Shown here one piece after another: positions 8,282 to 18,003 of a stretch of 64,000 bases of DNA (its first letter is position 1; each line of letters opens with the position of its first letter). Source of the DNA: Nonomuraea sp. NBC_00507 (lineage in GTDB: Bacteria > Actinomycetota > Actinomycetes > Streptosporangiales > Streptosporangiaceae); NCBI RefSeq assembly GCF_036013525.1, contig NZ_CP107853.1, forward strand, positions 3,100,001 through 3,164,000, read 5' to 3'. A model generated the notes under the pieces. The model searched no databases, was not told where the DNA came from, and saw only the letters and a program-made list of their open reading frames with translations. The position numbers were made by a program, and so were the translations under genes.

Positions 8282-9067
8282 ATGACGACCACGCCGAGTG
8301 ACCCGACCACCGCGCTGCCCGGCCGGCCGCCCATCGTCGACCTGGCCACCTGGCAGGCCGCCCGTGATGAGCTTCTGGTCCGCGAGAAGGCCCACACCCG
8401 CGAGGGCGACGCCATCGCCGCGGCCCGCCGCCGGCTACCGATGGTGGAGCTCGACGGGACGGTCGAGGTCGTCGGACCCGATGGTCCGGTCCCGTTCCTG
8501 GACCTGTTCCAGGGCCGGGACGAGCTCGTGGTTTACAAGCACATGTGGTACGACGGCGCGCCGCACCAGGGGCAGTGCGAGGGCTGCACGACCACGGCTT
8601 GGCACCTGAAGGACGCCGTCTACCTCAACGCCCGCGGCGTCTCGTTCGCCATCCTGACCACGGGCCCGTGGGACGAGGTGGCCTCCTTCGCCGAGTTCAT
8701 GGGCTACACCCAGCCCTGGTACTCGGTGCGCGACGTGGACGCGCCGATCGGCGGAGAAATGGGTTACCTCACCTGCTTCCTGCGCGACGGCGACCGCGTG
8801 TTCCTCACCTACTCCACCACGGGCCGTGGCAACGAGCGGGTCAACGGGTCCCTCGGCCTGCTCGACATGACGCCCTACGGCCGCGGCGAGACGTGGGAGG
8901 ACAACCCCCAGGGCTGGCCCAACAAGGGGCGCGGCCCGTCCTGGTCCTGGCGCTCGGACGCGGACGGGAACGCCACCTGGGGCCCGACCGGCCGCCCCGT
9001 GCCGCAGTGGACCCGCCCCGGCGCGACCCCCGTGGAGACCCTCGGCCGGCGCGGCCACCACCACTGA
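8282..9067 (+). CDS. DUF899 family (thioredoxin-like fold) protein
   Basis: 261 residues from ATG 8282 with GGGAGGA just upstream. The sequence has the DUF899 hallmarks: an N-terminal helix ending VREKAHTREGDAIAAARRRL, the PMVE motif, then a segment with QCEGCTTTAWHL and FAILTTGPWDEVASF. The C-terminus carries the aromatic GWPNKGRGPSWSWR region. The family adopts a thioredoxin-like fold with a CxxC-like pair (QCEGC here) but has no established reaction. A symmetric operator precedes it, so it may belong to the adjacent two-component regulon. Confidence 0.88.
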   Translation: MTTTPSDPTTALPGRPPIVDLATWQAARDELLVREKAHTREGDAIAAARRRLPMVELDGTVEVVGPDGPVPFLDLFQGRDELVVYKHMWYDGAPHQGQCEGCTTTAWHLKDAVYLNARGVSFAILTTGPWDEVASFAEFMGYTQPWYSVRDVDAPIGGEMGYLTCFLRDGDRVFLTYSTTGRGNERVNGSLGLLDMTPYGRGETWEDNPQGWPNKGRGPSWSWRSDADGNATWGPTGRPVPQWTRPGATPVETLGRRGHHH

Positions 9068-9185: not shown

Positions 9186-10499
9186 TCAGCTGATCTCGAT
9201 GTAGTCCAGCTCGGCCCAGCGCGTCTGGTGTTGGAACCGCAGGGTGTTCCAGCCGGCGGTCAGCGTGAGCTGGGCGGGCACCTGCGTCCAGTTGTCCCAG
9301 CCGCGGTTGGGGTAGCTCAGCGCCAACTGCGTCGACCCGTTCACCGTCACCAGGTGCTGCGCGTCGCCGTACCCGGCGGCGTAGGCCACGTACGCGGTGT
9401 AGGCCCCGGCGACCGGCGCGAACACCCGGACGTCGACCCAGCTGTCCGCGTAGTCGATCTTGGCGACCACGGCGCCCTGGGACGCGCCCGCCGCGCCGGT
9501 GCGGACCTCGGCATGGTTGAGCGTGCCCCGCTCGGCCTCGTAGCGGACCCGGCTGCCGCGGACCACCGGGTAGTCGTCGGCCCAGCCCAGCTCCGCGGTG
9601 TACATGTGGCGTGCGTTGCTCACCCAGCCGTGGAAGAACACGCGGTTGCCGAGCACGTCGGTCCCGCCGGGGCCTTGGACGGCCCCGTCGAAGGTGGCGG
9701 TCGTCATCAGCGGCCGGTACGCCTTGGTGTAGGGCCCGGTGAGCGACGGGGACACGGCGTAGCTGGTGAAGTAGCCGTTGCCTGTGTAGGAGCCGGCCGA
9801 GTAGAAGAGCACGTAGTGGGAGGGCCGCTTGACGAGCACGGGAGCCTCGATCACCCCGGCCTCCTCGGGCCGGTCGTTGCGGATGAGCTCAGTGCGGCCG
9901 CCGACGAAGGTGACGCCGTCCGCGCCGACCTGTTGCAGCCACAGGATGGTGGGCCGGCCGACGGCGTTGCCGTCGTTCTTGTAGACCAGGTACCTCTTGC
10001 CATCGGTGTCGACGAAGCTCGACGGGTCGATGTCGCCGCCCTCGCTCGCGTTGCAGACGAGCGGTCCGTTACCGGCGGGCTGGAAGGGGCCGAGCGGGTT
10101 CGCCGAGGTCGCGGCGCCGATGCACATGCGCCCGGTCGCGGTGCTGGGGGCGGTGAAGTACATCAGGTAGCGGCCGTCGGGGAGACGGGAGACGTCGGGC
10201 GCCCAGAAGCCGCCGCTGCCCGCCCAGGACGGCTTGGCGGGCAGCGCGTCCCCGCGTACGGTCCACGGGCCGGTGGCGGACGGCGCGCTCGCGACCGGTA
10301 TGCGCCCGGCCGAACTGCTGGCGGAGTAGGCGTAGAAGGTGGAGCCGACCTGGATGACGTCCGGATCGGGGAAGTCGGCGCGGATGACGGCCGTCGGGGC
10401 CACGGCGGCCCCCGCGGGTCCGGCCGACGCCGCCCCGGCTGCCGGCAACCAGGCCGCGGCGGCGCTGCACACCAGGAAGAGACAGCCGAGCAGCCGCAT
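9186..10499 (-). CDS. Secreted GH43-family glycoside hydrolase with C-terminal carbohydrate-binding module
   Basis: 437 residues with an N-terminal signal peptide (hydrophobic run then Ala-rich cleavage region near residue 25). The five-bladed propeller GH43 motifs are visible: catalytic base Asp in RADFPDPDVI (~45), the modulating Asp in GGDIDPSSF, and the general acid Glu in GVIEAPVLV (~220). From about residue 320, YEAERGTLNHAEVRTG opens a CBM6/CBM35-like jelly roll running to the end (WNTLRFQHQT). GH43 enzymes typically cleave arabinan, xylan or related plant polymers. An inverted repeat 18 bp upstream of the start suggests local repression. Confidence 0.9.
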   Translation of the reverse strand: MRLLGCLFLVCSAAAAWLPAAGAASAGPAGAAVAPTAVIRADFPDPDVIQVGSTFYAYSASSSAGRIPVASAPSATGPWTVRGDALPAKPSWAGSGGFWAPDVSRLPDGRYLMYFTAPSTATGRMCIGAATSANPLGPFQPAGNGPLVCNASEGGDIDPSSFVDTDGKRYLVYKNDGNAVGRPTILWLQQVGADGVTFVGGRTELIRNDRPEEAGVIEAPVLVKRPSHYVLFYSAGSYTGNGYFTSYAVSPSLTGPYTKAYRPLMTTATFDGAVQGPGGTDVLGNRVFFHGWVSNARHMYTAELGWADDYPVVRGSRVRYEAERGTLNHAEVRTGAAGASQGAVVAKIDYADSWVDVRVFAPVAGAYTAYVAYAAGYGDAQHLVTVNGSTQLALSYPNRGWDNWTQVPAQLTLTAGWNTLRFQHQTRWAELDYIEIS

Positions 10500-11405: not shown

Positions 11406-11505
11406 ACGCGCGCAGTGACGCGGATCACCGTCACCGGCGGCGCATCGCTGTCACAAACCCCCGGCCTGATTGCGTCTTGTGAGTAGGCAAGGTTAGGGGG
11501 TTCCA

Positions 11506-12897
11506 ATGCTTTCGTTGTTGGCCAAGCGCCGCTCGTTTCAGTTCTCCCACTGGTCGTTCATGTTCGCGGAAATCGCCGTCTGGTCGTTCGTCGTTCTGGC
11601 GGTGACCGGGGCGGTGCTGATGGTGTTCTACGAGCCCAGCATGTCCCAGGTGACCTATGACGGCTCGTACGGCCCGCTGCGCGGTCTCTTCGTCAGCGAG
11701 GCCTTCGACTCGACCATGCATCTGAGCCTGGAGGTGCGCGGCGGCCTGCTCATCCGCCAGGCCCACCACTGGGCGGCGCTCATCTTCGTGGCGGCCGTCG
11801 TGCTGCAGCTGCTGCGGATGTTCCTCACCGGCGCGTTCCGCCGCCCGCGCACCGGGCAGTGGCTGATCTGGGTGACGCTGCTGGCGCTGGGCATGGCCGC
11901 GGGCGAGACCGGCAACGCCCTGCCTGACGACATGCTGTCGGGCGGGAGCCTGTGGCTGATCATGTCGGTCGTGCAGTCCATCCCCGTGGTGGGAACCTGG
12001 GCGATGTCGCTGCTGTTCGGCCCGGACTTCCCCGGCGACAGGGTCATTCCGGTCATGTACGGGGGGCACCTGCTGGTCGCGGTCGTCATGGCCGCGCTGC
12101 TGATCGCCCGTGAGCTGCTGGTGCGGCGGCACGGCCACTCCCGGTTCATCGCCTCGCTGCCGGCTCGGCGCAACGCACGCCCGATGATGGCGCTCGCCAC
12201 GATCGGCATGCTGATCATCCTCGGGTTCGGATTCCAGATCGCCCCGATCTGGCTGTACGGCCCCGCCAAGCCGACGCAGATCTCGGCAGGCTCGGTTCCC
12301 GACTGGTACATGGGGTTCCTCGACGGCGCCCTCCGGATCATGCCCGCGTGGGAACTCACCCTCGGGGACTACACGCTCAGCCTCGCCGTCCTCGTCCCCA
12401 CCCTGGTCGTCCCCGGGGTCTTCTTCACCGCCCTGGCCGCGTACCCGATGGTCGAGCGCTTCCTCCGCTCGCGACGCAGCCGCCGTGACGCGCTGGGCCG
12501 GCCCAAGACCACGAGCCGCATGGCCCGCGAGAGGCCCGCGCATGACCTGCTCGATCGGCCACGCGAGACGCCGGTGAAGACGGCCATCGCGGCCGCCGGC
12601 GTCACGTTCTACGGCCTGCTGTGGGCGGCCGCGGCCAATGACCAGATCGCCCACCAGTTCCACCTCACCGTCGACGCTGTGACGATCTTCTTCAGGTTCG
12701 CCGTGGTCATCGGTCCTGTCCTCGCCTTCGTCATCACCCGGTCGATCTGCCTCGCACTTCAGCAGACGGATCACCATGTGGCCGAGCACGGTGTGGAGAC
12801 CGGGATCATCACGCGGTCCCCGGACGGCGGATTCCACGAGCGGCTGGCGCCGGCGCAGCAAGAGCGCCGCGAGCCGGCGATCACCTCGGGGAGATGA
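11506..12897 (+). CDS. Cytochrome b (QcrB paralogue) lacking heme bH ligands
   Basis: A 463-residue homologue of the actinobacterial bc1-type cytochrome b subunit: HWSFMFAEIAVWSF, RGGLLIRQAHHWAAL, LPDDMLSGG and the C-terminal EHGVETGIITRSPDG match QcrB order and spacing. The heme bL pair appears kept (His87 in helix B, His188 in helix D), and the quinol-site motif PDWY is at 265-268. The partner positions for heme bH are Gln101 and Arg202/Glu203 instead of His. No qcrA or qcrC gene is nearby; instead a flavoprotein overlaps by ATGA. It is therefore probably a dedicated mono-heme quinone-reactive membrane subunit rather than the housekeeping QcrB. Heme loss is inferred from alignment by eye. 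Confidence 0.85.
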   Translation: MLSLLAKRRSFQFSHWSFMFAEIAVWSFVVLAVTGAVLMVFYEPSMSQVTYDGSYGPLRGLFVSEAFDSTMHLSLEVRGGLLIRQAHHWAALIFVAAVVLQLLRMFLTGAFRRPRTGQWLIWVTLLALGMAAGETGNALPDDMLSGGSLWLIMSVVQSIPVVGTWAMSLLFGPDFPGDRVIPVMYGGHLLVAVVMAALLIARELLVRRHGHSRFIASLPARRNARPMMALATIGMLIILGFGFQIAPIWLYGPAKPTQISAGSVPDWYMGFLDGALRIMPAWELTLGDYTLSLAVLVPTLVVPGVFFTALAAYPMVERFLRSRRSRRDALGRPKTTSRMARERPAHDLLDRPRETPVKTAIAAAGVTFYGLLWAAAANDQIAHQFHLTVDAVTIFFRFAVVIGPVLAFVITRSICLALQQTDHHVAEHGVETGIITRSPDGGFHERLAPAQQERREPAITSGR

Positions 12898-13997
12898 CCG
12901 TGGCATCGACCAGGCCACAGGTGGTGATCGTCGGAGCCGGGGTCGCCGGATATCAGGCGGCGCGCACCCTGTCGCGCAAGGTGGGAGACGGCGCGGAGAT
13001 CGTGCTGGTCAACCCGACCGGCGCCGCCCTGCATCCGGAGCTGCTCCCGCAGGTGATGACGGGCGTCCTCAGCCCGGATCGGGTGAGCGTGCCGCTGGCC
13101 GAGACGCTGCCGGGCGTGCGGGTGGTGCTCGGCACGGTCACCCACATCGACGCCCACGCCCGCCGCGTGCTTTACGACGGCGGCGTGCTGGACTACGACC
13201 GGCTGATCGTCGCGGCGGGAGGCGTGAGCGAAGTCGCCCAGGTCTCCGCGGTCTCGGCGCACAGCGTCGGCTTCCACAACGTCGGCCAGGCCCTCCAGCT
13301 GCGCGATCACATCCACCGGCAGCTTTCCCTGGCCGCCGCGAGCACCGATCCCTTCGAACGCGCGGCGCACTGCACGTTCGTCGTGCTCGGCGCGGGATAC
13401 GCGGGCACGGCGGCGGCCTCGGCCGGGCAGTCGCTGTCCCAGTCGATCGCCTGCCGCGACCCGCGGTTGCGCGAGCAGCCGATCCGCTGGATCCTGGCCG
13501 ATCCCGCCGAGTGGCTGCTGCCTGACATGCGGCACCGCCTGTCCAGGGCCACGGCACGGATGCTGCGGTCGCGGGGTGTGGAGGTCCGTACGCAGACCTC
13601 GCTCGGCCAGGTCACCTCCCGGGGGCTGCGGCTCACCGACGGCGAGTTCATCCCCACCCGCACGATCGTGTGGACCTTCGGGGTACGCCCGGATCCGCTC
13701 GTGACCAACCTCGGACTGGCGGCCGAGCAAGGCAGGATCAGGGTGGACGAGCACCTCGCCGTGCCCGGCCATCCCGAGATCCACGTCTGCGGCGACGTGG
13801 CCGCCGTCCCCGACCTCACCAGGCCCGGCAAGATCACCCCGATGAGCGGGCAGCATGCCCTGCGCCAAGGCCGGCTGGCGGGCGGCAACGTCGCGGCCTC
13901 CATCGGGTACGGCTCGCGCCGACCGTACCAGCACAGGATCCACGACTCCATCGTGGATCTGGTCCGGACGTGGGAGCAGCCGCTGCGGGTGGCATGA
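12894..13997 (+). CDS. NDH-2-like FAD/NAD(P)-dependent oxidoreductase, short C-terminus
   Basis: 367 residues starting in an ATGA overlap with the cytochrome b gene. The first nucleotide fold is VVIVGAGVAGYQAARTLSRK (~9-28) and the second is FVVLGAGYAGTAAASAG (~160). WTFGVRPDPL and VCGDVAAVPD are the conserved FAD-site elements of type II NADH dehydrogenases. Normal NDH-2 proteins continue 30-60 residues with an amphipathic membrane anchor. Here the protein stops at EQPLRVA, exactly where the promoter cassette begins. The cytochrome b partner could supply membrane attachment. NADH:quinone or NADH:heme reductase activity is a reasonable guess, not shown. Confidence 0.83.
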   Translation: MTVASTRPQVVIVGAGVAGYQAARTLSRKVGDGAEIVLVNPTGAALHPELLPQVMTGVLSPDRVSVPLAETLPGVRVVLGTVTHIDAHARRVLYDGGVLDYDRLIVAAGGVSEVAQVSAVSAHSVGFHNVGQALQLRDHIHRQLSLAAASTDPFERAAHCTFVVLGAGYAGTAAASAGQSLSQSIACRDPRLREQPIRWILADPAEWLLPDMRHRLSRATARMLRSRGVEVRTQTSLGQVTSRGLRLTDGEFIPTRTIVWTFGVRPDPLVTNLGLAAEQGRIRVDEHLAVPGHPEIHVCGDVAAVPDLTRPGKITPMSGQHALRQGRLAGGNVAASIGYGSRRPYQHRIHDSIVDLVRTWEQPLRVA

Positions 13998-14103: not shown

Positions 14104-14156
14104 CCTGAGCGTCATCGGTACCGAGCATCGTGGTCTGGCTCCGAAAGGTTGCAACC

Positions 14157-14840
14157 ATGGATAGTTCAGACGACGCCGACTTCGTCCACGACGACGGGGA
14201 ACACGACCCCGAAACCGAGAAACTCCTGCACAGCCGCCGCACGGTCCTCAAATCCATCGCGGTGGCCGCGGCGGGAGCGGCAGCGGCCGGGACGGGCGCG
14301 GGGGCAGCGCCGGCCGCCGCCGAAACAGTGCGCACCGCGGCCGGATCGGCGTACGCCGTCGCCGCCGGGGCGTCGGTGGAGGTCGCCTTATCGGTCAACG
14401 GGCAGCTGCGCAAGCTCGTCCTGGAGCCGAGAGTGACCCTCCTCGACGCGCTGCGTGAGCGACTCGGCCTGACCGGCACCAAGAAGGGCTGCGACCGGGG
14501 TGAGTGCGGGGCGTGCACGGTGCTGGTCGATGGTGAGCGGGTCAAGTCCTGCCTGACCTTGGCGGTGATGCGGGGTGGGGCCGAGGTCACCACAGTGGAG
14601 GGGCTGGCGCGGGGCGAGGAGCTGCACCCGGTGCAGGAGGCGTTCATCCGGCACGACGCGTTCCAGTGCGGTGCCTGCACTCCTGGTCAGATCATGTCCG
14701 CCGTGGCCTGCATCAACGAGGGGCACACGGGGTCGGAGGCGGAGATCCGCGAGTGGATGAGCGGGAACCTGTGCCGGTGCGCGGCGTACCAGAACATCGT
14801 CGCCGCTGTCGCCGACGCCGCGAAGGAGGTGCGGCGGTGA
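14157..14840 (+). CDS. Tat-exported 2Fe-2S subunit of PaoABC-like aldehyde oxidoreductase (copy 1)
   Basis: 227 residues from ATG 14157. A twin-arginine signal, SRRTVLKSIAVAAAGAAAAG, lies near residues 28-47. The plant-type ferredoxin domain binds cluster I through GCDRGECGACTVLVDG plus a later Cys (VKSCLTLAV), and the all-alpha domain binds cluster II through FQCGACTPGQI and GNLCRCAAY. In most homologues the residue between the Cys-Gly and Cys of cluster II is Tyr (CGYC); here it is Ala. It passes electrons from the molybdenum subunit to FAD. It overlaps the FAD subunit gene by GTGA and lies behind promoter cassette A. Confidence 0.93.
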   Translation: MDSSDDADFVHDDGEHDPETEKLLHSRRTVLKSIAVAAAGAAAAGTGAGAAPAAAETVRTAAGSAYAVAAGASVEVALSVNGQLRKLVLEPRVTLLDALRERLGLTGTKKGCDRGECGACTVLVDGERVKSCLTLAVMRGGAEVTTVEGLARGEELHPVQEAFIRHDAFQCGACTPGQIMSAVACINEGHTGSEAEIREWMSGNLCRCAAYQNIVAAVADAAKEVRR

Positions 14841-15820
14841 GGGCCTTCGGTTACACGGTCGCCAGCAGCCCGGCCGAGGCGGTACGGATCGCCGCCGGGA
14901 CACCGAACTCGACGTTCGTGGCGGGCGGCACCGACCTGCTGAACCTGATGCGGGACGGCGCGGAGACCCACGACCACCTCGTTGACGTCAACCGCCTCGG
15001 CATCGACGGTGTCGCCTTCGACTCCAGAAGGCTTCGCGTCGGAGCGCTGGCCAGAATGCGGAATGTCGCCGAGCACTCCAGGGTGCGGCGGGAATTCCCC
15101 GTGCTGTCGGAGGCACTGCTGGCCTCGGCGTCCCCGCAGGTCCGCAACATGGCCTCGATCGGCGGGAACCTGTTGCAGCGCACCAGGTGCGGGTACTTCC
15201 GGGACTCGGCCTCGGCGTGCAACAAGCGGGTCCCGGGCAGCGGTTGCCCGGCGATCACCGGGCACAACCGGGGACACGCGATCCTGGGCGGCAGTGACCA
15301 CTGCATCGCGACGCACCCCTCGGATCTGGCGGTGGCGCTGATCGCACTGGACGCGACCGTGCACCTGATCGGCCCCGGCGGCGATCGGGCCGTGCCCATC
15401 GCTGACTTCTACCTCCTTCCCGGGTCCACACCGGACCGGGAGACCCCGATGCGACCGGGAGAGCTGATCACCTGGGTGGACGTGCCGCGCACCTCCCTGG
15501 CCGCGCATACGCGTTACTTGAAGCTGCGTGATCGGGCCACGTTCGAGTTCGCGGTGGTGTCGGTGGCGGCGGCGCTGCGGACCAGCGGCCGCGTGGTGCG
15601 GGACGTGCGGCTGGCGTTCGGCGGCGTGGGCACTCGCCCGTGGCGGGACACGCGCGTCGAGGCGGCGCTGCGGGGCCGGCCGCTGACCGCGCAGGCGATC
15701 GCCGAGGCGGGCCGGCTTCTGGTCAGGGAAGCCGAGCCGTACGAGGGGAACAGGTTCAAGGTCGAGCTCGTCCAGCGGGCGCTGGTGAGCATCCTCAGCG
15801 ATCTGGGAGGGCTTCGATGA
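14837..15820 (+). CDS. FAD-binding subunit with extra 4Fe-4S site, PaoB-like (copy 1)
   Basis: 327 residues from GTG 14837 (GGAGG at 14825-14829). VAGGTDLLNLM is the FAD-binding loop of CO-dehydrogenase/xanthine-oxidase flavoproteins. The insertion TRCGYFRD...ACNKR...GSGC...DHC provides four cysteines, which in E. coli PaoB (YagS) hold an additional 4Fe-4S cluster. NMASIGGNLLQRTRC is the second FAD motif. This insertion separates PaoB-like subunits from ordinary XdhB/CoxM. It is the middle gene of a three-gene overlap-coupled operon. Confidence 0.93.
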   Translation: MRAFGYTVASSPAEAVRIAAGTPNSTFVAGGTDLLNLMRDGAETHDHLVDVNRLGIDGVAFDSRRLRVGALARMRNVAEHSRVRREFPVLSEALLASASPQVRNMASIGGNLLQRTRCGYFRDSASACNKRVPGSGCPAITGHNRGHAILGGSDHCIATHPSDLAVALIALDATVHLIGPGGDRAVPIADFYLLPGSTPDRETPMRPGELITWVDVPRTSLAAHTRYLKLRDRATFEFAVVSVAAALRTSGRVVRDVRLAFGGVGTRPWRDTRVEAALRGRPLTAQAIAEAGRLLVREAEPYEGNRFKVELVQRALVSILSDLGGLR

Positions 15821-18003
15821 GCGGGCTGGTGGGGCAGGGCGTGGCGCGGGTGGACGGCCGGGCGAAGGTCACCGGCGCCGCCCGCTACGCCGCGGACAAC
15901 GAGGTGACCGGCGTGCTGCACGGTTTCCTGGTGATGAGCACGATCGCCCGCGGCGAGGTCGTGGAGATCGACACCAGGGCGGCACTGGCGCATCCCGGCG
16001 TCGTCGCGGTCTACACCCACGCCGACATGCCGAGGCTGAATCTGCCGGATTTCCCGTTCAACAGGCGTTTCATCCCCATGCAGGACACGCGGGTGCACCA
16101 CCACGGGCAGCCGGTCGCGTACGTCCTGGCCCAGACGCTGGAGCAGGCGCAGGAGGCGGCGAACCTGGTGAAGGTGCGCTATCGGGCGGAGGATCCGGTC
16201 GCGCGGATGGCGGACGTGCTCGACGAGGCGTTCCTGCCGGAGAAGTTCCGCAACAGGCCCAACGAGTCGGCCCGCGGCGACGCCGCCGCGGCGCTCGAGC
16301 AGGCCGAGGTGCGCATCGACCAGACCTACAGCAGCCCGATGCAGCACCACAACCCGATCGAGCCGCACACCACCACCGCCGTCTGGGAGGGCGGCACGCT
16401 CACCCTGTACGAGAGCACCCAGGGTGTGGTCTTCGCCCGTAACGCCGTGGCGTTCGCGTTCGGCAAGGAGGATCCCGAGAGCGTTAGAGTCATCTCGCCC
16501 TACCTGGGCGGTGGCTTCGGCGCCAAGGGCCCCACCTATCCGCACACGCTGCTCACCGCGGCGGCGGCGCAGCTCGCCGGCCGGCCGGTGAAGCTGGTGC
16601 TGTCGCGCGCGCAGATGTACACCTCCAACGGTCACCGCGCCGAATACCGCCACCACCTCCGGCTCGGCGCCACCCGGCAGGGCAACCTGACCGCCATCGT
16701 CGACACCTCGACGGCGCAGGTGACCCGCACGGACGAGGGCATCTACAACGGCAGCGACTCCACGCTCCGCCTGTACGCCTGCCCGAACGTCCACGTGCGG
16801 CAGCTGGGCGTGCGGCTGGACCTGCCGACGTCAAGCTACATGCGCTCACCGGAGACGACCGCGCACTTCGGCCTCGAGACCGCCATGGACGAGCTGAGCT
16901 ACGAGCTCGGCATCGACCCGGTAGAACTCCGGATCCGTAACCACACCGAGGTCGACCAGCAGAGCGAGAGCCTCCAGCCCTACGCAGGCAAGCAACTGCT
17001 GGAGTGCTACCGGGCCGCGGCCGAGGCGTTCGGCTGGGCCGGGCGCAACCCCAGGCCGGGCACGACCAGGGACGGCGACGAGTACGTCGGCTGGGGCATG
17101 GCCACCGAGACCCACACCTACGGCTTCATCCCGTCCCAGGCCCACCTCGCGATCAGCCCTGATGGGCGGGCGACCCTGCGTGCCGCCACCCAGGAGATCG
17201 GCACCGGCACGTACACCGTGCTCAGCCAGGTCGTCGCCGAAGGGCTCGGCATGCCGCTCGGCCACGTCACGACGCTGCTCGGCGACACCACGTACCCGCC
17301 CGCGTCCTTGTCGGCGGGGTCGTCCACGATGCCCAGCGTGGCCGGCTCGGCGGCCGACGCGGCGCAGCGCGCGCGGAACGCCGTGATCGCGTTCGCCGTC
17401 GCCGACCCGCGCTCCCCGCTGCACGGCGTGCCCGCCGAGGAGGTCGTGACCGAGGACGGGCGCCTGTTCGCCCGGGGCGACCGCGACCGCAGGGACACCT
17501 ACCGCGACGTCGTGACCCGCCACGGCAGCGCCGTCGAGGTGACCGGAAGCCAGGACAACACGCCCGGGCACTCGTTCGGCGCGGTGTTCCTGGAGGTACG
17601 GATCCAGCCGAGGCTGGGCAGGTTGCGCGTGACCCGGGTCGTGACCGCGCACGACCTGGGACGCGTGCTCAACCGCCGGACCGCGCGCGGGCAGGTCATC
17701 GGCGGCGTGACGTGGGGGATCGGCTTCGCCCTGATGGAGCACACGATGGTGGACCCGAACACGGCGCGGGTCGTCAACCCCAACCTGTCCACCTACCTGG
17801 TTCCGGTCTGCGCGGACACGCCGTCGGTGGAGGCGTTGTTCGTGGATCGGTCGGAGCCGGACCCGGACGGCAAGCTGCGCGGGGTCCGCGGCTTCGGCGA
17901 GACGCCGGGAACCGGCGTGCCCGCGGCCATCGGCAACGCGATCTACCACGCCATCGGCCGCCGCCTCCGGGACGTTCCCTTCACCCGGGACAAGCTGCTC
18001 TGA
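15817..18003 (+). CDS. Molybdopterin-binding catalytic subunit, PaoC-like (copy 1)
   Basis: 728 residues from ATG 15817, overlapping the FAD gene by 4 bp. The N-terminus GQGVARVDGRAKVTGAARYA is the conserved opening of xanthine dehydrogenase family large subunits. GGGFGAKG (about residue 230) is a molybdopterin-contact loop, and the C-terminal RGFGETPG contains the catalytic Glu. Family enzymes hydroxylate aldehydes or N-heterocycles with water-derived oxygen. With a Tat-bearing 2Fe-2S partner the complex should be exported folded. No PaoD/XdhC maturation factor is in the window. A perfect hairpin follows the stop. Confidence 0.93.
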   Translation: MSGLVGQGVARVDGRAKVTGAARYAADNEVTGVLHGFLVMSTIARGEVVEIDTRAALAHPGVVAVYTHADMPRLNLPDFPFNRRFIPMQDTRVHHHGQPVAYVLAQTLEQAQEAANLVKVRYRAEDPVARMADVLDEAFLPEKFRNRPNESARGDAAAALEQAEVRIDQTYSSPMQHHNPIEPHTTTAVWEGGTLTLYESTQGVVFARNAVAFAFGKEDPESVRVISPYLGGGFGAKGPTYPHTLLTAAAAQLAGRPVKLVLSRAQMYTSNGHRAEYRHHLRLGATRQGNLTAIVDTSTAQVTRTDEGIYNGSDSTLRLYACPNVHVRQLGVRLDLPTSSYMRSPETTAHFGLETAMDELSYELGIDPVELRIRNHTEVDQQSESLQPYAGKQLLECYRAAAEAFGWAGRNPRPGTTRDGDEYVGWGMATETHTYGFIPSQAHLAISPDGRATLRAATQEIGTGTYTVLSQVVAEGLGMPLGHVTTLLGDTTYPPASLSAGSSTMPSVAGSAADAAQRARNAVIAFAVADPRSPLHGVPAEEVVTEDGRLFARGDRDRRDTYRDVVTRHGSAVEVTGSQDNTPGHSFGAVFLEVRIQPRLGRLRVTRVVTAHDLGRVLNRRTARGQVIGGVTWGIGFALMEHTMVDPNTARVVNPNLSTYLVPVCADTPSVEALFVDRSEPDPDGKLRGVRGFGETPGTGVPAAIGNAIYHAIGRRLRDVPFTRDKLL

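What the first reader, a model, noticed from the sequence alone, without database searches (positions are those of the whole stretch)
11506..13997. Cytochrome b paralogue that kept heme bL ligands but lost both heme bH ligands, coupled to an NDH-2-like flavoprotein
In the QcrB-like protein His87 and His188 align with the heme bL pair and the quinol-oxidation PDWY motif (265-268) is intact, but the two heme bH positions are Gln101 and Arg202/Glu203. Loss of both ligands of one heme, with retention of the other, looks selected rather than random decay. There is no Rieske or cytochrome c gene nearby. Instead an FAD/NAD(P) oxidoreductase overlaps by ATGA. This suggests a two-subunit NAD(P)H-, flavin- and mono-heme-linked quinone oxidoreductase that I do not know as a described system.
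Basis: partly seen in the sequence, partly recalled or inferred. Interest (0 to 1): 0.78.

Follow-up and report, generated by a model that had tools for sequence, protein, structure and literature searches.

The report
Cytochrome b with one heme plugged
Soil bacteria of the Nonomuraea group carry a stand-alone copy of a respiratory cytochrome b in which one of the two heme pockets appears blocked by a tryptophan while the other is kept, so it probably cannot carry electrons across the membrane like its ordinary relative and may do something new, under what looks like a stress-type switch.

Summary
The gene at 11506-12897 encodes a QcrB paralogue that keeps the heme bL ligands (H87, H188) and lacks both bH ligands (Q101, R202). 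The helix-C glycine of the bH pocket is also replaced by tryptophan (W122). W122 occurs in 253 of 255 aligned rows lacking both bH histidines (the other two are fragments), in 22 of 23 with one, and in 0 of 50 four-His QcrBs. Sampled W122 rows form one clade. Residues and tails of the quinone-reduction side are changed too. So this looks like an old, maintained, plugged-bH family, not decay.
The NDH-2 partnership is only partly supported: an NDH-2-like gene is near 14 of 58 named clade loci, and most copies stand alone. None of the 58 lies near qcrA or qcrC, but four-His QcrB orphans also exist in this family.
New: an ECF41 (SigJ-type) promoter, TGTCACA-N16/17-CGTC, scores >=10 of 12 upstream of 49 of 58.
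Best reading: a regulated, non-Q-cycle, outer-side monoheme quinone cytochrome (mechanism inferred). No natural bH-less cytochrome b turned up in the literature searches listed.

The parts
11506..12897 (+). Plugged-bH monoheme QcrB paralogue (463 aa)
11764..11766 (+). Codon of H87, heme bL ligand (helix B)
   Evidence: H in 252 of 255 rows with no bH His (2 gaps, 1 Asn)
11806..11808 (+). Codon of Q101 at the heme bH ligand position (helix B)
   Evidence: H in all 50 four-His rows, Q in 224 of 255 rows with no bH His
11869..11871 (+). Codon of W122, replacing the bH-side glycine of helix C (the plug)
   Evidence: W in 253 of 255 rows (2 fragments without this region), G in 50 of 50 four-His rows
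12067..12069 (+). Codon of H188, heme bL ligand (helix D)
   Evidence: H in 255 of 255 rows with no bH His
12109..12111 (+). Codon of R202 at the second heme bH ligand position (helix D)
   Evidence: R in 220 of 255 rows with no bH His; never His in 225 database proteins
12894..13997 (+). NDH-2-like FAD/NAD(P) oxidoreductase (367 aa), overlapping the cytochrome gene by ATGA; accessory, present beside a minority of relatives
   Evidence: Pfam Pyr_redox_2; best solved match 5kmq/4nwz, aligned to residue 355 of 405; adjacency counts
11449..11476 (+). ECF41-type promoter TGTCACA-N17-CGTC, 29 bp upstream of the start codon
   Evidence: Only exact match in the window (0.12 expected); conserved upstream of relatives; consensus from PMC3426412
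11415..11428 (+). Palindrome GTGA-N6-TCAC, CRP/FNR-like operator (family name recalled)
   Evidence: GTGA-N6-TCAC within 300 bp upstream in 37 of 54 clade upstreams versus 1.6% of random 330-nt stretches, in none of the 14 rows under 60% identity; extended motif 1 match in window, 0.02 expected
11495..11500 (+). Ribosome-binding-site-like AGGGGG
   Evidence: sequence; a G-rich stretch is visible in most upstreams printed

Best explanation
What it is (well supported, about 0.95): a member of a family of orphan QcrB paralogues in which the inner (cytoplasmic-side) half of cytochrome b has been decommissioned. Both bH ligands are lost, the bH-cavity glycine is tryptophan, and residues of the quinone-reduction site and cytoplasmic tails are lost. 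The outer half (heme bL and much of the quinol-site scaffold) is kept. How it works (inferred, about 0.4): a regulated, non-Q-cycle monoheme quinone cytochrome. It exchanges single electrons between the menaquinone pool, at the modified outer quinone pocket beside heme bL, and a one-electron partner on the outer face. It does so without moving electrons across the membrane. Expression is probably driven by an ECF41 (SigJ-like) sigma factor, with a CRP-like site in the Nonomuraea/Planotetraspora branch. Where the NDH-2-like flavoprotein is present it would feed or drain the same quinone pool from the inside.
For: Ligand and plug statistics. One clade, SH-aLRT 100, on a tree built with the trait columns left out (40 of the W122 rows sampled). 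Quinone-reduction-site features: position 12 is Phe in 30 of 31 four-His representatives but in 1 of 275 W122 rows, position 207 Trp in 26 of 31 but 1 of 275; these align with F39 and W236, QN-site residues named in PMC8616580 (passages). C-tail after G441 median 22 versus 88 residues; N-terminus before HWSF median 14 versus 39 (the 39 comes from longest open frames, and solved QcrBs have 29-40 residues there). bL-side glycines G35 and G136 and both bL His kept. Purifying selection. 0 of 58 near qcrA/qcrC. ECF41 promoter score >=10 of 12 in 49 of 58, >=11 in 33 of 58; 0 of 22 at >=10 in the four-His comparison set; random background 1.9% at >=10 and 0.7% at >=11. SigJ/ECF41-like genes in the held flank of 11 of 58, 0 of 22 in the comparison set. 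The strict promoter pattern occurs 6 times in the 12.9-Mb genome (2 for the reversed control); two of the other sites lie beside SigJ-type genes.
Against: No partner, substrate or redox measurement. Tyr137 and Gln264 of four-His QcrBs are absent (0 of 275), and 13 of 31 representatives have PGWY, so even the outer quinone site may not turn over. The helix-A bH-side glycine is still Gly in 78 of 255 rows, so not every bH feature is gone. Standing alone is not special: 11 of 22 four-His QcrB loci from the same family also lack qcrA/qcrC within 1.5 kb, and five of 61 four-His upstreams also score >=11 for the promoter. 9 of 58 clade loci score under 10. The sigma-gene expectation rests on one genome, and one of the 11 loci supplied the search query. 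No model coordinates were available, so 'plugged' rests on sequence position. A heme held without protein ligands cannot be excluded.
Confidence: 0.4

Rival explanations
1. Alternative or asymmetric subunit of the canonical bcc-aa3 complex: the protein pairs with QcrB (plus QcrA/QcrC) under stress. In a mixed dimer its quinol-derived electron would leave through bL-to-bL transfer to the partner's bH; in a pure dimer it would throttle the complex.
For: QcrB fold and many positions over 95% identical in both classes; the genome also encodes complete qcrCAB. Orphan QcrB3 of Streptomyces coelicolor co-purifies with Nar1 and bcc-aa3 parts (PMC7931247, passages). bL-bL transfer connects the sites in cross-inactivated asymmetric dimers in Rhodobacter (PMC4330944, passages).
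Against: Cytoplasmic tails are shorter, while a QcrB loop or extension contacts complex IV in mycobacteria (PMC8361435, passages; which segment it is I did not determine). Tyr137 and Gln264 are lost and PGWY is frequent. QcrB3 was not tested here for the W122 signature.
Confidence: 0.25
2. The first reader's two-subunit NAD(P)H:quinone oxidoreductase made of the NDH-2-like flavoprotein and the monoheme cytochrome.
For: ATGA overlap in the window; NDH-2-like gene directly behind the cytochrome gene in 13 of 58 named loci at >=79% identity, five of them Planotetraspora; other NDH-2/orphan-QcrB pairs in different arrangements. The solved NDH-2 match ends at residue 355 of 405, so the flavoprotein's C-terminal part is missing.
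Against: 44 of 58 named loci have no NDH-2-like hit over 60 bits in the held flank (L208 has a weak 30% hit); one shows an NDH remnant with the cytochrome kept. No known heme path between the inner face and bL once bH is lost.
Confidence: 0.12
3. Non-redox pseudo-subunit or decoy: a quinone- or inhibitor-binding QcrB mimic (for example against natural bc1 inhibitors) that no longer does electron transfer.
For: Stand-alone gene in many different neighbourhoods, promoter conserved; bH and parts of the outer site lost.
Against: Both bL ligands and bL-side glycines are almost invariant, which a non-redox decoy would not need. Resistance or biosynthetic context was not searched for systematically.
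Confidence: 0.13

Closest known systems
Actinobacterial QcrB, cytochrome b of the bcc-aa3 supercomplex (PDB 7q21, 6adq, 6hwh, 7e1v)
   Different: No bH ligands, W122 in place of the bH glycine, quinone-reduction-site residues lost, shorter tails, no qcrA/qcrC neighbours, below the NCBIfam cut-off
Orphan QcrB2 (SCO7120) and QcrB3 (SCO7236) of Streptomyces coelicolor (PMC7931247)
   Same: QcrB paralogues encoded away from qcrCAB; QcrB3 is proposed to be made in spores (passages)
   Different: No mention of lost heme ligands in the passages seen; their sequences were not examined here
Engineered bH-knockout cytochrome bc1 (H212N) of Rhodobacter (PMC4330944)
   Same: Cytochrome b with bL and no bH (passages)
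   Different: Laboratory mutant of a functional complex; the present family is natural and has further changes
ECF41 (SigJ-like) target genes: carboxymuconolactone decarboxylases, oxidoreductases, epimerases (PMC3426412)
   Same: Same promoter TGTCACA-N16-CGTC; Pyr_redox/_2 proteins are among the oxidoreductases listed there (passages)
   Different: The word cytochrome does not occur in that paper's main text (0 occurrences); here the target is a respiratory cytochrome paralogue, with a SigJ-like gene nearby in only 11 of 58 loci
NDH-2, type II NADH:quinone oxidoreductase (PDB 4nwz/5kmq)
   Same: Pyr_redox_2 domain, two GxGxxG motifs, GD motif
   Different: 367 aa, match ends at residue 355 of 405; the AQxAxQ-like quinone motif (name recalled) reads GQHALR

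Membership tests
Canonical QcrB of bcc-aa3 | Four axial His for hemes bL and bH | tested here: not met
   bL pair kept, both bH positions lost
Canonical QcrB of bcc-aa3 | Gene in a qcrCAB operon | tested here: not met
   0 of 58 named clade loci have qcrA/qcrC in the held flank. Four-His loci: 21 of 22 in the named set (mostly other taxa), 11 of 22 in the same family
Canonical QcrB of bcc-aa3 | Curated family score (NCBIfam NF050120, 500 bits) | tested here: not met
   477.8 bits
Canonical QcrB of bcc-aa3 | QcrB fold | tested here: met
Canonical QcrB of bcc-aa3 | Assembly with QcrA, QcrC and complex IV | not testable with these tools
   needs co-purification
NDH-2 | FAD and NAD(P) Rossmann domains | tested here: met
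   Pyr_redox_2, GAGVAG at 14 and GAGYAG at 166
NDH-2 | C-terminal membrane-anchoring region (feature recalled) | tested here: inconclusive
   alignment to 4nwz stops at residue 355 of 405, 9 residues before the end of the window protein
ECF41 regulon | Promoter TGTCACA-N16(+/-1)-CGTC | tested here: met
   window 11449-11476, spacer 17; relatives; consensus from PMC3426412
ECF41 regulon | Transcription depends on an ECF41 sigma factor | not testable with these tools
   needs sigma mutants
Streptomyces QcrB2/QcrB3 | Orthology to SCO7120 or SCO7236 | not tested
   their sequences were not retrieved

The most novel reading that the evidence does not exclude
Evolution has turned a Q-cycle cytochrome b into a half-membrane, single-heme redox module: a stress-induced one-electron exchanger between outer-face radicals or metals (for example superoxide) and menaquinone at the bL-side pocket, by analogy with superoxide:quinone oxidoreductases (recalled). 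It would have been made by plugging the inner heme pocket with tryptophan, and would be, to my knowledge, the first natural cytochrome b of the bc/b6f class without heme bH.
Probability: 0.12. Interest if true: 0.88.

Novelty: new variant of a known kind. Interest (0 to 1): 0.72.

Why it matters
Two b hemes spanning the membrane are the textbook core of bc1/b6f/bcc complexes, and bH-less forms are known to me only as laboratory mutants. A conserved natural family that keeps bL and plugs bH gives a ready-made test of what heme bL and the outer quinone site can do alone, and of whether bL-bL transfer between unlike protomers is used in nature. Many members carry ordinary bc1-subunit names in databases, so respiratory reconstructions of these genera may be misled. 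The ECF41 promoter supplies a handle on when it is made.

Tried and rejected
Substitute heme ligands: H209 and H211 at the cytoplasmic end of helix D are in 65% and 68% of 31 representatives with no conserved partner on helix B. His at 203 occurs in 15 W122 rows, none with His101. Rejected.

Random decay: rejected by dN/dS and the near-invariant W122. dS is small and codon-biased, so the ratios are rough. Ten canonical qcrB loci were fetched but used only in the promoter count; their dN/dS was not computed, so relative constraint is unknown.

Obligatory NDH-2 partner: rejected as a general rule. Link with the molybdenum hydroxylase genes behind it (14130-18003): as far as my simple gene caller shows, that set follows the cytochrome gene only in the window and same-species locus L045 among 41 loci.

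Inner versus outer halves of helices A-D: mean conservation differs little (inner 0.71 versus 0.75, outer 0.78 versus 0.78), so this global measure did not help; only specific positions do.

Distribution: the family-wide and class-wide searches do not list the window's own gene or that of G014, although one search found both: they score few candidates per genome, so their lack of hits over 52% outside the family is not evidence of absence. The named scan used two peptide patterns and kept the best 80 of 226 confirmed loci; one W122 member is from Streptomyces sp. H39-S7.

Literature: searches listed no natural bH-less cytochrome b. I saw listings only, except passages of PMC7931247, PMC8616580, PMC3426412, PMC4330944 and PMC8361435. 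Most subscription papers are not held.
Full report
OBSERVATION. The window carries a QcrB-like gene (11506-12897 +) followed by an NDH-2-like gene (12894-13997 +) with an ATGA overlap. The genome is a 12.9-Mb actinomycete, G000, and the nearest database proteins are from Nonomuraea. Pfam, PDB sequence comparison and structure comparison make the first protein a QcrB-class cytochrome b. NCBIfam's actinobacterial QcrB model scores it 477.8, below its 500 cut-off. The same genome holds four more QcrB homologues: one in a qcrCAB locus (L013) and three orphans (L011, L012, L014), all with four His. Of the five, only the window copy lacks the bH ligands.

THE LOSS IS CLADE-WIDE. In 225 database proteins (the best 120 of each of two searches, overlaps removed), H87 is His in 222, H188 in 225, position 101 Gln in 180 and His in 14, and position 202 never His. 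In a larger alignment of 328 rows (identical locus rows removed, near-copies not), 255 have neither bH His (two are fragments lacking helix B and C, two have a gap at 202), 23 have one (always position 101) and 50 have both. His at 101 and at 203 never occur together.

THE PLUG. Position 122 is the bH-side glycine of helix C (M. tuberculosis QcrB G149 by the alignment; bovine G116 by recall). It is Trp in 253 of 255 rows without bH His (the fragments are gaps), in 22 of 23 one-His rows, and Gly in 50 of 50 four-His rows. The bL-side glycines (35 and 136) are kept. The helix-A bH-side position 21 is Ala or Ser in 171 of the 255 but still Gly in 78. The one exception, P0164, has G122 and H101 but Q202. 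On a tree of 77 rows built without the trait columns, the 40 sampled W122 rows plus P0164 are one side of a branch with SH-aLRT 100 (quick IQ-TREE, midpoint root for drawing). P0164 and the His101 rows lie inside it, so W122 and loss of His202 are most simply ancestral, with later changes at 101. The role of these glycines as heme-packing sites is recalled knowledge.

OTHER CHANGES ON THE INNER SIDE. Position 12 is Phe in 30 of 31 four-His representatives and in 1 of 275 W122 rows; position 207 is Trp in 26 of 31 and 1 of 275, mostly Arg instead. These align with QN-site residues F39 and W236 of M. tuberculosis (PMC8616580, passages). E22 (E49 there) is kept in 18 of 31. The N-terminus before HWSF is 14 versus 39 residues (medians; the 39 is from longest open frames) and the C-tail 22 versus 88. 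A 19-residue longer cytoplasmic loop (34 versus 15) marks 118 of 275 W122 rows; 137 have the ordinary 15. The outer site is altered too: Tyr137 and Gln264 of four-His QcrBs are in 0 of 275, and 13 of 31 representatives have PGWY.

SELECTION. Window versus 21 orthologues: dN/dS 0.15-0.57; NDH-2 versus 11: 0.09-0.46. The gene is maintained, with moderate constraint; canonical qcrB was not computed for comparison.

NEIGHBOURHOOD. Among 41 loci (window and 40 from other genomes) only small groups of close relatives share neighbours; otherwise they differ. In a named set (best 80 of 226 confirmed loci) 58 have W122 and 22 are four-His. The W122 loci come from Nonomuraea, Planotetraspora, Streptosporangium, Thermocatellispora, Thermoactinospora, Actinomadura, Actinoallomurus, one Streptosporangiales MAG and one Streptomyces. 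Within the held flank (up to 6 kb, hits over 60 bits): QcrA or QcrC 0 of 58 versus 21 of 22; NDH-2-like 14 of 58 (13 directly behind at >=79% identity, one divergent at 47%) versus 0 of 22; SigJ/ECF41-like 11 of 58 versus 0 of 22. The 22 are mostly from other taxa, so the contrast is partly taxonomic: among 22 four-His loci from the same family, 11 have QcrA/QcrC within 1.5 kb and 11 do not. In the genus search 43 of 54 genomes have a hit of at least 57% identity (my count) and 10 of 54 have the adjacent NDH-2.

PROMOTER. Upstream of orthologues with unrelated neighbours a block is conserved: GTGA-N6-TCAC (Nonomuraea/Planotetraspora branch only), then TGTCACA-N16/17-CGTC, then a G-rich ribosome-binding site. 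The second motif is the ECF41 promoter of PMC3426412 (passages). With 12 scored positions, >=11 is reached by 28 of 40 upstreams at >=66% identity and 7 of 14 more distant clade upstreams, by 5 of 61 four-His upstreams (some genes counted twice), and by 0.7% of random stretches drawn from the same loci. Those five (L012, L117, L122, L126, L130) have no qcrA/qcrC within the held flank, so the promoter marks some four-His orphans as well. In the named set it is 33 of 58 versus 0 of 22 at >=11, and 49 of 58 versus 0 of 22 at >=10 (background 1.9% at >=10). In the whole genome the strict pattern occurs 6 times (2 for the reversed control); two other sites lie beside SigJ-type genes. The genome has 9 SigJ-type genes over the family cut-off and 24 above 90 bits. 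By hand that gives roughly 1-2 expected in 58 loci against 11 seen; this is rough, since one genome is used, the score scales differ and one locus supplied the query.

MECHANISM. Shown by sequence: at most one bis-His heme; inner heme site and inner quinone-site residues lost; gene standing alone; maintained; ECF41-type promoter in most copies. Inferred: the protein cannot run a Q-cycle alone. Either it exchanges electrons on the outer side between menaquinone and a one-electron partner (preferred), or it joins QcrB as an unlike protomer. Rhodobacter bH-knockout work shows bL reduction without Qo-Qi connection, restored when a partner's bH is reached through bL-bL transfer (PMC4330944, passages). 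The shorter tails may remove a contact with complex IV (PMC8361435, passages; segment not determined), and the outer-site changes argue against ordinary bifurcation. QcrB3 of S. coelicolor shows that orphan QcrBs can meet the supercomplex (PMC7931247, passages).

NOVELTY. None of my searches (listings) showed a natural cytochrome b of this class lacking bH. I file it as a new variant of a known kind.

Noticed in passing
window 14130-18003: Molybdenum hydroxylase genes (2Fe-2S subunit and MoCo subunit by Pfam; an FAD-type subunit between them by reading); the small subunit begins with a Tat-like RRTVLK signal. Directly downstream of the NDH-2-like gene but not conserved there in relatives.
   Followed up: partly
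L012 5799-7316, L011 6485-8014, L014 6021-7460 (same genome): Three further orphan QcrB paralogues with all four His; L012 and four relatives (L117, L122, L126, L130) also carry an ECF41-type promoter.
   Followed up: partly
L170, around 7659: In G035 a full-length NDH-2-like gene sits upstream of, and overlaps, a four-His orphan QcrB: another NDH-2/orphan-QcrB pair.
   Followed up: partly
L011 8822-9262, L161 -933, L168 -2922, L186 2631 (locus or gene-relative coordinates): A small cupin-like protein (similar PPHRHSGP/RPHRHGKA stretch, read by eye) recurs beside orphan QcrB genes and beside an ECF41 sigma gene.
   Followed up: no
P0164 (database protein): Clade member with G122 and H101 but Q202: apparent partial reversion of the plugged heme site.
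   Followed up: partly
family-wide and class-wide searches: the genome search with P0117 did not list the window's own gene, which one search found with P0001; its negatives should not be trusted.
   Followed up: partly
window 8282-9067: DUF899 protein followed by a convergent GH43/CBM35 glycosidase (9186-10499).
   Followed up: no
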